Of a stretch of 64,000 nt of DNA, positions 24,519-30,993 are shown one piece after another. Source of the stretch: Myxococcales bacterium (GTDB lineage Bacteria > Myxococcota_A > Polyangia > Polyangiales > Polyangiaceae); assembly GCA_016191785.1 (NCBI GenBank), contig JACPVJ010000144.1:1-64000 (forward strand), read 5' to 3'. Below the pieces are notes generated by a model. The model ran no database searches and was not told the DNA's origin. It worked only from the letters and a program-made list of their open reading frames with translations. How positions within the stretch are numbered: the stretch's first letter is position 1; each line of letters opens with the position of its first letter. The position numbers and the translations under genes are program-made.

Positions 24519-25016
24519 TCAGACCAGCGGCTCGAAGTCCCGATCGAGCACGGTCTTGCGGCCGTCACGTGCCGCGTTGCGGATCGCTTCGTTGCACAGC
24601 TTGCGCAAGTGCTCCGAGAGCACACCGGTCACCGAATCCGAGGTGTTCATTCCGGACCGCGCCCGAACGTACGCCTTGACCTTGGACACGACCACCAGCA
24701 CTTCCTTCGGCAGGTCGTCGCCCTCGCCGCTGCTGACGATCCGCCGGCGGGGAACCTCGTCCAGCTCTGCCGGAGCGTCGCCCTCGCGTTCCTCCGCTTC
24801 GCGCAGCTTCTGCCACTCGGCGGCGGTCGGAGCCTTGCGTTCTTCCGCCCACGCGTCACGGTGCCTGGCCTCCGGCACGTGAGCGTCCCAGCACGGCACC
24901 GAGCAGAAATAGAGCCCCGTGCGCTTGCGGTTGCAGGTCGAGACGCTGCACACCCAGTACTTCTGCTCGTAGTCGAGGGGGCGTTTGCAGGTCGAGCAGA
25001 TCTTCCACTGTGCCAT
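24519..25016 (-). CDS. Zinc-finger plus histone-fold protein
   Basis: 165 residues. Residues 1-55 contain ordered Cys/His ligands: C7-C10, C23-C28, C38-C42, then H46 and H52, a treble-clef-like zinc module. Residues 60-100 are a charged linker. Residues 103-165 match a histone fold: helix 1 about 103-121, helix 2 about 126-150 (SVTGVLSEHLRKLCNEAIRN), loop with GRKTV and a short helix 3 (DRDFEPL). The histone signature R-x-T-x4-D is present as R153, T155, D160. This is much more like archaeal histones and the histone-fold proteins reported from bacteria than like HU or H-NS. It probably binds DNA, with the zinc module in protein contact or targeting. It lies 17 bases after the DUF4388 gene in one operon with a Ser/Thr kinase. 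Whether it forms nucleosome-like particles is unknown. Confidence 0.72.
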   Translation of the reverse strand: MAQWKICSTCKRPLDYEQKYWVCSVSTCNRKRTGLYFCSVPCWDAHVPEARHRDAWAEERKAPTAAEWQKLREAEEREGDAPAELDEVPRRRIVSSGEGDDLPKEVLVVVSKVKAYVRARSGMNTSDSVTGVLSEHLRKLCNEAIRNAARDGRKTVLDRDFEPLV

Positions 25017-25033: not shown

Positions 25034-28000
25034 TCAGGTTTTCTTGGGTCCACGCGTCGAGCTCCGCGCGGGCCTCGACGTGGCGCGCGGCGCCGCTTCG
25101 ATGGGTGCGATGCAGCGGGTGACCATCAGCAAGTAGACCACACGACGGATGACGTCGGGGTCGTGACCGGCCTCGACCAACTCGGGAAGAGATGCTTGGG
25201 TCATCCCGATGGCGTCGGCCACCGTCGCCTCCGCCACGTCGAGCTCGAACGCTTCGAGATCGGACTCGGGGTGAAGGTGCAGGGCGTTCCCGGCCAGCCG
25301 GGTCAGCACGCGGTCCATCTGGGCCTCTTCGGGGTGCGCTCGCAGCCCGAGGGTGAGCGTCGCGAGTGGCGACGCCATTCCGGGGATGTTCCCCCAGATC
25401 GCTTCCAGCAGGTCGAGCCCGTTGTAAAACGAGTATTTCGTCCCCTGGGGCAGGCCGAACAGGTAGATCAGGCGCTCTTCCAGCTGCTGGTTGCGAACCT
25501 CCGCGATCTGGTCGGCAGTGACCAAGCCGAACTCGATCAGCTCGGTCTCGAGGGTGGCCTCGTGGCTGGGCGGCTGCGAGATGGGCTCGCCCTCGAGCTG
25601 AGATTGCTCGAGCAAGCCGTGCGCAACCAGCGTGGCGCCAAGCGGTGCCACCTTGCGCCCGGTGTGGAGCTTGGTGGGAATGCCCTCCTGGAAATACCCA
25701 GCGTGCTCCACCGGGGAGTCTTCTTTGCGCTCGACGGGCTCGGTGAAGATCAGCGTGCCGCTGAGCGAACGATCCAAGAGGTAGAGCAAGATGTGGGAAA
25801 ACGGGGTTCGCTCGAAGGAGCCGCTGGCGCTCGGGGCGTGGATCTGATCGATGCCGCCACCGGCCTCGCGCTCGTTGGGCGGGAGCGTCTTGGGCGCGCG
25901 ACGCCACTGGATCGACGGAGCCGACGGCTCGACCTCGGAGATCTCGAGGGGGTCTTGCGCGTCTTCTCCGGGCGCCGGGTTGCCTTGAGGCGGCGCGACC
26001 GCGGCAGAGGTGCGTCGAACCACCGACGGGCCGCTGGCCGGTGGCGGCGGCGCTCGCAACGCCCCGCTCTTGCTGGGCGTGTCGTCGATGCCCGGAGGCG
26101 CGACGGACTTGCGCGGCGGGCCGACCGACGGCGGAGCGCCCGCCGCGCGCCGCAGCACGGCAGACGGCGACGACGACGACGACGGCATCGAGGGTGTCGA
26201 CGGTGTCGACGGGTACGACTGTGACGTCAGCTCGACGCTCCGCATCTCGGCGCTCTTGTGCTCGGCGCTGCGCAGGTCGGACGAGTCGTGGATCACGGTG
26301 GCGTCTTCCGAGCTCGGCAAGCGCAGCGCGCGCGGCGGCGCCACCGGCATCACCCCGGGGCTGACCGGTCGACCCGCCCGGGCCGGAGCGGCGCGCACCG
26401 GTTCGGGAGGCGCAGCGACCGGCGGCGGCGCCTCCGCCGGCGGCGCCGCGGGAAGCTCTTGAACCGAGTCCGGCTCGAGCTCTTCGAGCACTTCCGTGAC
26501 GGACTCGGGCGCGAGCGCGATGGGTTCGGGCTCTGCTTCCGGCGCGAGCGCGATGGGTTCGGGCTCCGCCTCGGGCTCCGGTGCGAGATCGCCGAACACG
26601 TCGGGCAGCTCGGGCTCCCAGGGCAGCGCGGTCCGGTCCACCTCCTGCGGCTCGGGCGGTGCGCTCGGGATCACATCGACGGCAACACCGCTCGCGGCCG
26701 CGGGTGGCACGGTCGGCACCGCGTTCAGCGCTTCGTCGTAGCTGTCGGGTGGCTCGGAAGGCGGGCGCTGGGGGGCGGGCGCCGGCGCCGGCGTTGCCGC
26801 CAGCACCTTGGCTTGGGCCTCCGCCAGCGCGGCGTCGGCGTCGATCACGCCCACGACCTGGCGCGCAGGGTCGTTCACCAGATCGAGGGCGACCCGCGCT
26901 TTGAGCAGCTGCCCCGCCGCGTCGTACACCAATCGGACGGTGGGGTTCACGTAGTCCGCGGGTTCGGCCGGCGTCTTGGTCACCACCCCCCGCTCGCCGG
27001 TGTTGAGCTGCACGGCAGTGCCCCGCGGGAAGATTCCGAGCGCGCCCACCAAGAGGGCGAGCATCGCGCGCTCGGTCGCGTCCTTCGCCTCGGCGCGCAT
27101 GCGCTCGATGGCCTCGTCCGGCGTCGGCGTGGTGCTCGCGGCCAAGTCGGGCTCGAGCAACTCGTTGAAGCGGTTCGCCGTCGCGACGATGCGCGGAGCC
27201 ACCATCGCTCGCCGCGCGCCGCCGTACAGCGGGCCGAAGCGGTCCGCCTGACGCATCCAGTGGGATTCGTAGCCGATCACCGTGCGGATCATCGACGCCG
27301 GCCGCAGCTGCCCGAGGGCCGTCAGCACCAGCGCGGTAGCGGCGGGCAGTCGCTGCTCGGCGTCCTCCGTCATTCGCATCACCACCACGTCGTTGCCGCG
27401 GCCGACGATCCCCGTGACCAGGGGGTGCGCCACGTCGAAGAACAGCGCGCTCATGGCGATGCGCGCCAGCACTCCGAGGTCGGTGGTGAGCTGACGCGCC
27501 ATCGTCACCGCCAGAATGCTGCGGTTCACCGCGCGCCCAGCGGCGTCGTGGTTCAAGTTTCGCATGGCGGTGATGCCGAGGAACGCAGGAGCGTCGCCCT
27601 CGGAGAGCATCACCAGGCGCTGGGCCAGGCGTTTGGCGTGGTGCGGCAGCTGATAGCGCCCGTTGGTCAGATTCTCGAAGATGCGGCGCATGACCACCAC
27701 GCTGGTGGCGTAGGTCCGCACGACCTGCTCTTCGATGCTCAGGTCTTCTTCGTCGTCCATCCGCGCCGGCGGCACGTAACGCAGGCGAATGCGTGGCGAC
27801 GGCTCGATGACGCCGTTCTCGGCGCGGGCGTCCTTCTGCTGGAACAGGCGAGCCAGCGAGGTCAGATCGGAGCGGTTGGCGTCGGTCTCGATCATCACCT
27901 CCGACACGCCCAACCGGCGGATCATCGTCCCGAGCTCGAGCGCGTTTTCGTACTCGCCACGGGACGCCTTGAGCAAGTGCCCCGCCACGAACACGGTGTT

Positions 28001-28255
28001 CTTCGCGAAGAGCAGCGTCAGGGCCTCGCCGGTCGCGGCGCCGAAGCCGCGGAGCGCCTCGACCGTCTGGTCGATTTGCTGCAGCACCGCCATGTTGTCG
28101 ATGGCGTGCAGCTGCACGATCTTGAGCAGGCGAAAGATCTGCAGCGCCAGCGCGGCGCCCAGCTCGCGTTGCTGGTGCGCCTGGGCCAGCTCGGCAACGT
28201 TCCTGAGATACGCGTTCTGCTGACCGTCGTCCGCGTTCTGGAGCTCGATGCTCAT
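25034..28255 (-). CDS. Large DUF4388 protein with HD-like N-terminal region
   Basis: 1073 residues. ATG 28255 overlaps the upstream kinase stop by four bases (ATGA). Residues 1-450 are helical, with a stretch LFFDVAHPLV near 275 and SHWMRQADRFGPLYGG near 335 reminiscent of HD/HD-GYP-type proteins. The canonical HD and GYP residues are not all evident. Residues about 470-820 are a low-complexity region very rich in Pro, Glu, Ala and Ser. The C-terminal 280 residues begin with a DUF4388 domain (SFERTPFSHILLYLLDRSLSGTLIFTE), a fold typical of myxobacterial and deltaproteobacterial signalling and gliding proteins. It is placed between the kinase and the histone-fold gene and so may be a phosphorylation target or adaptor. 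Role unknown. Confidence 0.75.
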   Translation of the reverse strand: MSIELQNADDGQQNAYLRNVAELAQAHQQRELGAALALQIFRLLKIVQLHAIDNMAVLQQIDQTVEALRGFGAATGEALTLLFAKNTVFVAGHLLKASRGEYENALELGTMIRRLGVSEVMIETDANRSDLTSLARLFQQKDARAENGVIEPSPRIRLRYVPPARMDDEEDLSIEEQVVRTYATSVVVMRRIFENLTNGRYQLPHHAKRLAQRLVMLSEGDAPAFLGITAMRNLNHDAAGRAVNRSILAVTMARQLTTDLGVLARIAMSALFFDVAHPLVTGIVGRGNDVVVMRMTEDAEQRLPAATALVLTALGQLRPASMIRTVIGYESHWMRQADRFGPLYGGARRAMVAPRIVATANRFNELLEPDLAASTTPTPDEAIERMRAEAKDATERAMLALLVGALGIFPRGTAVQLNTGERGVVTKTPAEPADYVNPTVRLVYDAAGQLLKARVALDLVNDPARQVVGVIDADAALAEAQAKVLAATPAPAPAPQRPPSEPPDSYDEALNAVPTVPPAAASGVAVDVIPSAPPEPQEVDRTALPWEPELPDVFGDLAPEPEAEPEPIALAPEAEPEPIALAPESVTEVLEELEPDSVQELPAAPPAEAPPPVAAPPEPVRAAPARAGRPVSPGVMPVAPPRALRLPSSEDATVIHDSSDLRSAEHKSAEMRSVELTSQSYPSTPSTPSMPSSSSSPSAVLRRAAGAPPSVGPPRKSVAPPGIDDTPSKSGALRAPPPPASGPSVVRRTSAAVAPPQGNPAPGEDAQDPLEISEVEPSAPSIQWRRAPKTLPPNEREAGGGIDQIHAPSASGSFERTPFSHILLYLLDRSLSGTLIFTEPVERKEDSPVEHAGYFQEGIPTKLHTGRKVAPLGATLVAHGLLEQSQLEGEPISQPPSHEATLETELIEFGLVTADQIAEVRNQQLEERLIYLFGLPQGTKYSFYNGLDLLEAIWGNIPGMASPLATLTLGLRAHPEEAQMDRVLTRLAGNALHLHPESDLEAFELDVAEATVADAIGMTQASLPELVEAGHDPDVIRRVVYLLMVTRCIAPIEAAPRATSRPARSSTRGPKKT

Positions 28256-30993
28256 CGCCCCCTCAGTCGCGCCCGGAGCTGCGTGGCGGCCTGGAGCGCG
28301 CCGTTCTTCACCGCGGCCGAGTTGCCCCACTTGCCGGCCGCTTGGTCGAACACGTCCAGAACGTCCTTCGAGGTGGAGACGCGCGCGAGGAAGGTCATGG
28401 CCAAGATGCGCGTGTCGTCAACGTCCTCGCGCGTGAACATTCCGGCCTTCGACACCAGATCTTTCAAGACCGCCTCGCCGCGACCGGGCGACAGCTCGAA
28501 CAAGGTCTCGAAGAACAGCTGGCGCTCGTCGACGGCCAGCTTGTGGAAGGCCTGACTCTGGATGTGGAGCGCGAGCGGCGGACCGGCCTCTTTGACCTTG
28601 TAACGAACCAGCGTGCGAAGCGCCGCCATCCGCACCGCCTGATCGGGGTCGGTCATCAACTTGCCGAGCTCGTCGCGCAGGCCATCCATGTTGGCCGCGG
28701 CCCGCATGGCGACGGCTTCGACGCGGATCTCGGCGTGCGGGCTGGACTCGGCCTTGCGCAGCGCGACCGATGCGGCCTCGGTCTTCAGGCGGCCGAGCAG
28801 CGCCAAGATCACCTTGCCGCGGGCCAAGTCGGGATCGTCGAGCAGCTCCGCGATGCGGTCTTCGTGACCCGGCGCGTTCCGCTCCAGGTAGCGAAGGAGT
28901 GCGTTGCGGATGTCCTCGATGTCGGCGCGTGCCATCGCCCCGAGCACCGTGTCGAAGGCTTCGACGCCCACGTCCTCGAGCAGCACGGCCAGGTACGGGG
29001 CAGTGCGCGCGATCTTCGGCCACTCGCTCTCGGGGAGCTTTCGCGTGAGCTCTTTCAGCACCAGGGCCATGGTCTCGGTGTCGAACACGCTCCGGACCAG
29101 CTCGCGACGAATCTCGACGCCCCCGCGCACCGTGACGCTCTCGGCCACGGCCACCACCATGCGAAGCGCGAACTCCAGCGTCTGGCTCGCTGCGTTTTCG
29201 TGCAGGGCTCCGCTCAGGGGCACGGCCGCCAGCGGCAGGTTCCCGAAGGTCACCGCGTCGTTGGCCGCGTCGGCCAAGACGTCGACGAAGCGGGCTTCCC
29301 ACTCGTGCTCTGGCATGTCCATCGCGGCGGAAATCGCCGCCCGCGAGCGGTCGTCGAGCGAGAGCGCGTGGGAGGCGCGCACGGCGCGCAGCGCGACCTG
29401 CCGCGCAGCGATCGCGGCGGCTTTCTCTTCCAGATCCATGCCCTCGTCACCGTCGGCACCCTCACCGCGGCGCCGGTTCATCTCGGCCAAGATGCGGTGA
29501 CCTTCCTCGAGCAGCCGTTCGTACTGCCGAGCCGCTTCGTCAGAGGCGTTCAGCGCGAGAAACGACATGACGACGACGTAGCGGATGTGGTCGAAGCCGC
29601 GCTCCCAGAACGCGGTCGCCATGTCGTCTTCGGGCGAGAAATCCCGATACGGGTCCTTGCGGATCAGCTCGAGCCAGGCCCGAAGCTCGTCGGCGGTCAA
29701 CCCCGGCAGGAAGCTGAACCGCCGGAACCCGCTGGCGAACAGGTTGTAAGGGATCTCGTCGAACGGATGGAGGGGCTCCCACAGCACCACCCCACGCTTG
29801 GTGAACGAGTGTGGCTTCACGTCGAACACGAAGTCCTCGGGGTGCCGGTGGGTCACCTGCGAGAGCACCTCGGCCGTGGACGCGATCTGCTGGGTCGTGA
29901 CGGGGTGCTCCCAGGTGTACTGGCGCACGGCGGTCAGCGCGCGCTCGATGTGACGAAAAGCCTCTTGCAGCTCGGTGACCAGCTGCTGCTCTTCGACGGT
30001 GAGCGGCTCTTCCCTGCCCGCCGCTTCTTCTTCTTGCTCGGCGAGGGCGGCCAGCTGGTTGGCGACGGCAGCCTTCTTCTCTGGCTCGGGTTCGACCACC
30101 CCGGCTGCGCCCTGCACCACGGAGAGGACCCGGGCGATCTCGTCCCGCATCTCCTGGGCACTCTGGAAGCGGTTGCGGGGGTCCCACTGCAGCGCGCGGT
30201 CCACCAGCGCCACGACGTCGGGTGGGAGGTCCGACTTGGCCCGTGCGACGCTGGGCGCCGGCCTCGTCGCAGCGAGCACGAAGGCCTCTTGGTGTGAACG
30301 CCCCTCGTGCAGGCGCTTGCCGCTCAGCATCGCGTGGAGCACGGCACCGATCGAGAACAGGTCGGTTCGCGCGTCGATCCGGTCGTTCGAGCCGAGCGCC
30401 TGCTCGGGGGCCATGTACGCGGGGGTGCCGAGCGCAGTGCCCGCCAACGTCGGGTCGACGCCCGCCTCGCGGAGCCGAGCCACGCCGAAGTCGAGCACTT
30501 TGACGTAGCCCGAGTCCGTGACGAAGATGTTCGCGGGCTTGAGGTCGCGGTGAACGATGTTCATGCCGTGACAGACCGCGAGGAAGTCCAGTACGCGATC
30601 GATGATCTCGAGCGCGTACTCGACGGGCAGCGCGCGGTTGTGCCGCTTCCAGAGCTTGTCGAGGGTGACGCCCTCGAGCAGCTCCATCACGAAGTACGGG
30701 TCGCCTTCGTCGCTCTGACCCTCGTCGTAGATCTCGACGCGACCCGAGTGGTCGACGGCCTGGGTGAGCTTGGCCTCGCGGATGAAGCGCTGACGAACGC
30801 CGTCGTTCGTCGAAAACTCGCTGTGGAGCACCTTGATGGCGACGGCCGTCCCGGCTTCGTCGTGGCTCAGGTAGACGGCCGCCATGCCGCCGAGCCCGAT
30901 CAACTTCTCGATCGGCCACTTGCCCGCAACGACTTGCCCGATGCGCTGCTTGGCGAGGCTCAGCTCGTCCTGAACTGGCTGCTCTGCGGCCAT
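28252..30993 (-). CDS. Ser/Thr protein kinase with long HEAT-like C-terminal region
   Basis: 913 residues. N-terminal Hanks-type kinase (about 20-290): GLGGMAAVY glycine loop, VAIKVL (catalytic Lys), HRDLKPANI, LDFGVARL and GTPAYMAPEQ. All catalytic residues are present. There is no membrane helix. After a charged linker (about 300-360), residues about 370-560 form an unknown helical domain, and the last 340 residues look like HEAT-type repeats (PHAEIRVEAVAMRAAANM, DPDQAVRMAALRTLVRY). First gene of an operon with the DUF4388 gene (ATGA overlap) and the histone-fold gene. It should phosphorylate cytoplasmic partners; the obvious candidates are its operon mates. Confidence 0.88.
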   Translation of the reverse strand: MAAEQPVQDELSLAKQRIGQVVAGKWPIEKLIGLGGMAAVYLSHDEAGTAVAIKVLHSEFSTNDGVRQRFIREAKLTQAVDHSGRVEIYDEGQSDEGDPYFVMELLEGVTLDKLWKRHNRALPVEYALEIIDRVLDFLAVCHGMNIVHRDLKPANIFVTDSGYVKVLDFGVARLREAGVDPTLAGTALGTPAYMAPEQALGSNDRIDARTDLFSIGAVLHAMLSGKRLHEGRSHQEAFVLAATRPAPSVARAKSDLPPDVVALVDRALQWDPRNRFQSAQEMRDEIARVLSVVQGAAGVVEPEPEKKAAVANQLAALAEQEEEAAGREEPLTVEEQQLVTELQEAFRHIERALTAVRQYTWEHPVTTQQIASTAEVLSQVTHRHPEDFVFDVKPHSFTKRGVVLWEPLHPFDEIPYNLFASGFRRFSFLPGLTADELRAWLELIRKDPYRDFSPEDDMATAFWERGFDHIRYVVVMSFLALNASDEAARQYERLLEEGHRILAEMNRRRGEGADGDEGMDLEEKAAAIAARQVALRAVRASHALSLDDRSRAAISAAMDMPEHEWEARFVDVLADAANDAVTFGNLPLAAVPLSGALHENAASQTLEFALRMVVAVAESVTVRGGVEIRRELVRSVFDTETMALVLKELTRKLPESEWPKIARTAPYLAVLLEDVGVEAFDTVLGAMARADIEDIRNALLRYLERNAPGHEDRIAELLDDPDLARGKVILALLGRLKTEAASVALRKAESSPHAEIRVEAVAMRAAANMDGLRDELGKLMTDPDQAVRMAALRTLVRYKVKEAGPPLALHIQSQAFHKLAVDERQLFFETLFELSPGRGEAVLKDLVSKAGMFTREDVDDTRILAMTFLARVSTSKDVLDVFDQAAGKWGNSAAVKNGALQAATQLRARLRGR

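What the first reader, a model, noticed from the sequence alone, without database searches (positions are those of the whole stretch)
24519..25016. Bacterial protein joining a zinc finger to a histone fold
The C-terminal 60 residues carry helix 1, helix 2, the R-x-T-x4-D motif (R153/T155/D160) and a short helix 3, as in archaeal histones and recently described bacterial histones. The N-terminal 55 residues show a regular set of six Cys and two His ligands. Histones are rare in bacteria, and this one is in an operon with a Ser/Thr kinase. I recall that surveys of prokaryotic histones mention a zinc-finger-bearing class, so novelty of the class itself is unclear; the kinase context seems less explored.
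Basis: partly seen in the sequence, partly recalled or inferred. Interest (0 to 1): 0.85.

Follow-up and report, generated by a model that had tools for sequence, protein, structure and literature searches.

The report
Myxobacterial zinc-finger (ZZ) histone
This myxobacterial gene encodes a small protein made of a zinc finger joined to a DNA-bending type of histone, a kind already described in 2024 as 'ZZ histones'; the neighbouring kinase turns out to be a local accident of gene order, while relatives show that the same finger also exists as a protein of its own without any histone.

Summary
The minus-strand ORF 24519-25016 (165 aa) has six Cys and two His at invariant spacing, a disordered linker and an alpha3-type histone fold with R153-x-T155-x4-D160. 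It is a ZZ histone, a published class (PMC11390915, 2024; reference protein D0LYE7 of Haliangium). Its profile finds the Bdellovibrio histone HBb at E 2e-17, and 8 of HBb's 10 main DNA-contact residues are identical. In this phylum it is common: 146 of 379 sampled genomes match. It is the only histone detected in this genome. The kinase link is weak: the kinase/DUF4388-like gene pair precedes the histone in this genome and four family relatives only, and has two copies without a histone in this same genome. Beyond the finding: (1) the finger also exists as a stand-alone protein of about 65-73 aa forming its own deep clade, and 23 of 193 genomes of the class have finger but no detectable histone; (2) two relatives carry the finger plus two tandem histone folds; (3) the linker holds a conserved RR-[ILVM]-[IVLAP] motif (49 of 71 against 1.9 in shuffles). 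Most likely a dimeric DNA bender that tethers a protein-binding finger to DNA.

The parts
24519..25016 (-). ZZ histone gene, 165 aa
24828..25016 (-). Zinc finger (residues 1-63): C7-x2-C10, C38-x3-C42 and C23-x4-C28, H46-x5-H52; ZZ-like cross-brace by analogy
   Evidence: finger model mean pLDDT 90; nearest folds ZZ domains of p62, RSC, Ada2/SAGA, HERC2, p300, weak scores
24714..24827 (-). Disordered linker (residues 64-101) with the conserved motif R90-R91-R92-I93-V94-S95
   Evidence: pLDDT under 50 for 81-99; motif statistics
24522..24713 (-). Alpha3-type histone fold (residues 102-165): helix 104-121, helix 127-150, short helix 156-164; R153/T155/D160
25034..28255 (-). Upstream gene, 1073 aa, weak C-terminal DUF4388 match below the curated cut-off; co-directional, 17 nt from the histone start; neighbour, not part of the system in most relatives
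   Evidence: linked to the histone only in close relatives
28252..30993 (-). Ser/Thr protein kinase with HEAT-like repeats, 913 aa; ATGA overlap with the next gene; neighbour, not part of the system in most relatives

Best explanation
It is a ZZ histone. Two copies pair through their histone folds and bind the DNA backbone at the minor groove without sequence specificity, bending it as HBb does (inferred from conserved contact residues). The N-terminal zinc finger, held on a flexible acidic linker that carries one short basic-hydrophobic motif, binds another protein or peptide rather than DNA (inferred from its resemblance to ZZ and MYND-type treble clefs), so the protein acts as a DNA-tethered adaptor rather than a bulk packaging protein. 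The finger does not read the tail of another histone here, because no other histone is detected in this genome. The kinase upstream is not a required partner.
For: Sequence and profile matches to HBb (8cmp, 8fvx) at E 7e-10 and 2e-17; HBb is the top Foldseek hit, probability 1.00, 47% identity, although E is only 0.04. Of the ten HBb DNA-contact residues listed in PMC11317129, S9, K10, K12, N22, S24, K52, T53 and R57 are identical here and K16 is Arg; only T8 (Val110) is lost. S111, K114, T125, S126, R153, T155, R159 and D160 are invariant in 15 relatives. Two relatives encode two tandem histone folds in one chain (L090, L094), as expected if the fold works as a pair. The finger's closest folds are ZZ domains. 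Stand-alone fingers exist in genomes without detected histones, so the finger has a job of its own. No second histone is detected in this genome.
Against: No dimer could be modelled here; the histone part of the monomer model is of moderate confidence (pLDDT 60-80). I found no paper reporting DNA binding, bending or zinc binding for any ZZ histone. Fold scores for the finger are weak (best Foldseek E 0.08, Z 3-4) and the lists include MYND, LIM and ribosomal treble clefs. [quoted passage not shown] The genome is 95% complete, so a second histone could be missed.
Confidence: 0.62

Rival explanations
1. The histone is a substrate or effector of the operon's Ser/Thr kinase: the kinase phosphorylates it (for example in the linker, R-R-R-I-V-S95, which fits a basophilic R-x-x-S site) and so switches DNA binding.
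For: Conserved gene order kinase, middle gene, histone in five genomes of two genera, with an ATGA overlap and a 17 nt gap in the window. Several relatives have Ser or Thr after RR[IV]V.
Against: The kinase/middle pair is not near the histone in the other loci examined. It has two paralogous copies in this genome with no histone beside them, and G112 has pair and histone on different contigs. The genome has at least 150 kinase domains, so a kinase nearby is not informative. The linker Ser is replaced by R, P, A or G in many relatives.
Confidence: 0.12
2. A chromosome-packaging histone used in bulk, like HBb, with the finger only adding stability.
For: Only histone detected in the genome; DNA-contact residues conserved.
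Against: Patchy presence: 9 of the 29 listed genomes of the family match. PMC11390915 reports low expression and abundance of the Bdellovibrio ZZ histone. A purely stabilising finger would not explain invariant ligands in stand-alone finger proteins.
Confidence: 0.15
3. The histone fold has been recruited to a role without DNA (protein dimerisation only).
For: Histone folds can lose DNA binding (DUF1931 class, PMC11390915); the linker is acidic (charge about -6.6).
Against: The residues kept invariant are the HBb DNA-contact residues and the domain is basic (pI 9.7).
Confidence: 0.08

Closest known systems
ZZ histones (alpha3 histone family, Nat Commun 2024, PMC11390915; D0LYE7 of Haliangium ochraceum)
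   Same: N-terminal eight-ligand zinc finger, linker, C-terminal bacterial-dimer-like histone fold; the ligand order and seven of eight ligand offsets given for D0LYE7 match
   Different: Here it sits at the end of a multi-gene transcription unit, whereas the paper says alpha3 histone genes are generally single-gene; the sixth Cys is at C-x3-C in all 73 relatives, while the paper's legend lists C51 and C53 (C-x1-C), possibly a misprint
HBb / Bd0055 bacterial dimer histone (8cmp, 8fvx, 9ezz, 9f0e)
   Same: Histone domain, 47% identity, RD clamp and DNA-contact residues
   Different: HBb has no zinc finger or linker
Eukaryotic ZZ domains (p62, HERC2, p300, Ada2, RSC)
   Same: Size, ligand order and weak structural similarity
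   Different: No Pfam ZZ match; spacing differs; MYND-type and other treble clefs score similarly

Membership tests
ZZ histone | C-terminal alpha3-type histone fold close to bacterial dimer histones | tested here: met
   HBb E 2e-17 with profile; Foldseek top hits HBb; short third helix and R-x-T-x4-D
ZZ histone | N-terminal finger with a C4 and a C2H2 site in cross-brace order | tested here: met
   C7 C10 / C23 C28 / C38 C42 / H46 H52 invariant; order matches D0LYE7. Pairing of ligands into sites is by analogy
ZZ histone | Finger fold similar to eukaryotic ZZ domains | tested here: inconclusive
   ZZ domains dominate the lists but Z is 3-4 and other treble clefs are tied; no Pfam ZZ match
ZZ histone | Binds two zinc ions | not testable with these tools
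   Ligands conserved only
Bacterial dimer histone | Dimer that binds and bends DNA | not testable with these tools
   8 of 10 HBb contact residues identical; tandem-fold relatives argue for pairing
Archaeal/NF-Y histone (Pfam PF00808) | Match above the curated cut-off | tested here: not met
   14.1 bits against a cut-off of 21.4
Kinase-linked regulatory operon | Conserved linkage of the kinase and the histone | tested here: not met
   Five genomes of one family only; pair found without histone

The most novel reading that the evidence does not exclude
The finger is an independent bacterial adaptor domain, not named in Pfam or NCBIfam, that exists alone (its own deep clade of proteins of about 65-73 aa), fused to one histone fold, and fused to two tandem histone folds. 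ZZ histones would then be one way of putting this adaptor on DNA, through a linker with a conserved RR-hydrophobic motif, and the finger's partner, not another histone, is the key to the function of the whole class.
Probability: 0.4. Interest if true: 0.5.

Novelty: new member of a known kind. Interest (0 to 1): 0.33.

Why it matters
I found no reported function for ZZ histones. The comparison here narrows the question. It removes the kinase, and the 'reader of another histone's tail' idea, as general explanations. It offers stand-alone fingers and tandem-fold versions as natural controls, and points to a conserved linker motif that can be mutated. That makes the role of the finger directly testable in culturable myxobacteria.

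Tried and rejected
Pfam, NCBIfam, PHROGs and PADLOC give no named family above cut-off for the protein; the QH-AmDH gamma match (17.7 bits, cut-off 25) lies largely in the Cys-rich stretch and is rejected as compositional. PADLOC matches of the kinase are to Ser/Thr kinase domains in general and give no support for a defence system. No match in plasmids or phages, so no sign of mobility in those collections. An unbiased search for recurring neighbours within 6.5 kb across 70 loci found no convincing one outside close relatives. MYND, zf-HIT and LIM assignments for the finger were considered from the CS-x3-C-x3-H pattern; structure lists mix some of them with ZZ, so ZZ is kept as the published name, not as proved. 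A class-wide search for the middle gene failed and was replaced by searching the kinase tail and reading eight of its loci.

Full report
What is there. The ORF is on the minus strand at 24519-25016 and encodes 165 residues. It has a start ATG with a Shine-Dalgarno-like CGGAG upstream and shows protein-level constraint against its closest relative (46 synonymous, 15 non-synonymous codon changes; only 2 amino-acid changes in the 63-residue finger). The window is from a myxobacterium: near relatives are labelled Polyangiaceae or Myxococcales. The genome held has 8.3 Mb in 216 contigs and is 95% complete.

Anatomy. Residues 1-63 hold C7, C10, C23, C28, C38, C42, H46 and H52, invariant in 15 relatives and with identical spacing in 73 of 73 full-length relatives. 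Residues 64-101 are an acidic linker, disordered in its larger part by the model. Residues 102-165 form helix 104-121, helix 127-150 and a short helix 156-164. R153, T155 and D160 are invariant.

Identity. By sequence the histone part finds HBb of Bdellovibrio (8cmp, 8fvx) at E 7e-10 alone and 2e-17 as a profile, then the Leptospira histone (9qt0) and, weakly, archaeal histones. HBb is also the top Foldseek hit, with probability 1.00 but E only 0.04. Aligning to HBb with the residue list of PMC11317129, eight of ten main DNA-contact residues are identical. The finger alone was modelled at mean pLDDT 90; its best matches are ZZ domains (p62, RSC, SAGA Ada2, HERC2, BIG, p300/CBP) with low scores and with MYND, LIM and ribosomal treble clefs close by. 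This architecture is the published ZZ histone class (PMC11390915). Pfam PF00808 does not reach its cut-off, so such genes are easily missed by that model.

Distribution. A profile of the family matches 146 of 379 sampled genomes of the phylum; some of these matches are to the finger or the histone part alone. Within the window's own family it is patchy: 9 of the 29 listed genomes. In this genome it is the only histone detected by a profile of the family's histone domain, by PF00808 or by DUF1931. There is no match in plasmid or phage records.

The kinase. The gene lies third in a co-directional run: Ser/Thr kinase with HEAT-like repeats (28252-30993), a 1073-residue protein with a weak DUF4388 match (25034-28255), then the histone. 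The run is conserved in four other genomes, two of the same genus and two of another genus of the family (L049, L050, L053, L054). It is absent at the other loci examined, and no other neighbour recurs widely across them. The kinase/middle pair itself is an older module: in this genome it has two further copies (L109, L116), and it occurs in other genomes, in each case read without the histone beside it. With at least 150 kinase domains in the genome, a kinase nearby carries little information. I therefore reject a general kinase-histone link; a lineage-specific one is not excluded.

Beyond the finding. (a) Some genomes have the finger as a complete small protein (65-73 aa where the start is clear) with the same spacing. 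In 193 genomes of the class, 90 have the finger, 87 the histone domain, and 23 the finger without any histone match; eight genomes with a finger-only match were searched again and one of them had a histone elsewhere. A tree of 100 fingers splits into a stand-alone clade (22 rows, support 100/100) and a fused clade in which three stand-alone fingers of one family (L124-L126) are nested, which looks like loss of the histone part (few columns, so inner forks are weak). (b) L090 and L094 carry the finger followed by two histone folds. (c) The linker, otherwise variable in sequence and length, holds RR-[ILVM]-[IVLAP] in 49 of 71 relatives against 1.9 (sd 1.4) in shuffled linkers; the motif was chosen after looking at the linkers and the rows are related, so this shows conservation, not independent gain. 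None of the three is discussed in the main-text passages of PMC11390915 that I read; its supplements were not available to me.

Mechanism. Shown: architecture, conservation, lack of a conserved partner gene, lack of a detected second histone. Inferred: pairing of histone folds, minor-groove backbone binding and bending as in HBb, and a protein-binding role for the finger. The reported low abundance of the Bdellovibrio ZZ histone (PMC11390915) fits an adaptor or regulator better than bulk packaging.

Noticed in passing
L124-L128, L163-L182: Stand-alone small zinc-finger proteins (65-73 aa in most) with the same eight-ligand spacing as the ZZ histone finger, in genomes with and without histones; three tested have no Pfam or NCBIfam name.
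   Followed up: partly
L090 and L094: ZZ finger followed by two tandem histone folds in one chain (249 and 237 aa), in two different families.
   Followed up: partly
window 24714-24827 (linker) and relatives: Short conserved motif RR-[ILVM]-[IVLAP] in the disordered linker, 49 of 71 relatives.
   Followed up: partly
window 25034-30993; L109; L116: A kinase plus DUF4388-like gene pair present in three diverged copies in this genome; function unknown.
   Followed up: partly
PMC11390915, Fig. 4 legend: The legend lists C51 and C53 for the C4 site; all 73 relatives here have C-x3-C at that place, so C53 may be a misprint for C55. D0LYE7 itself was not read.
   Followed up: no
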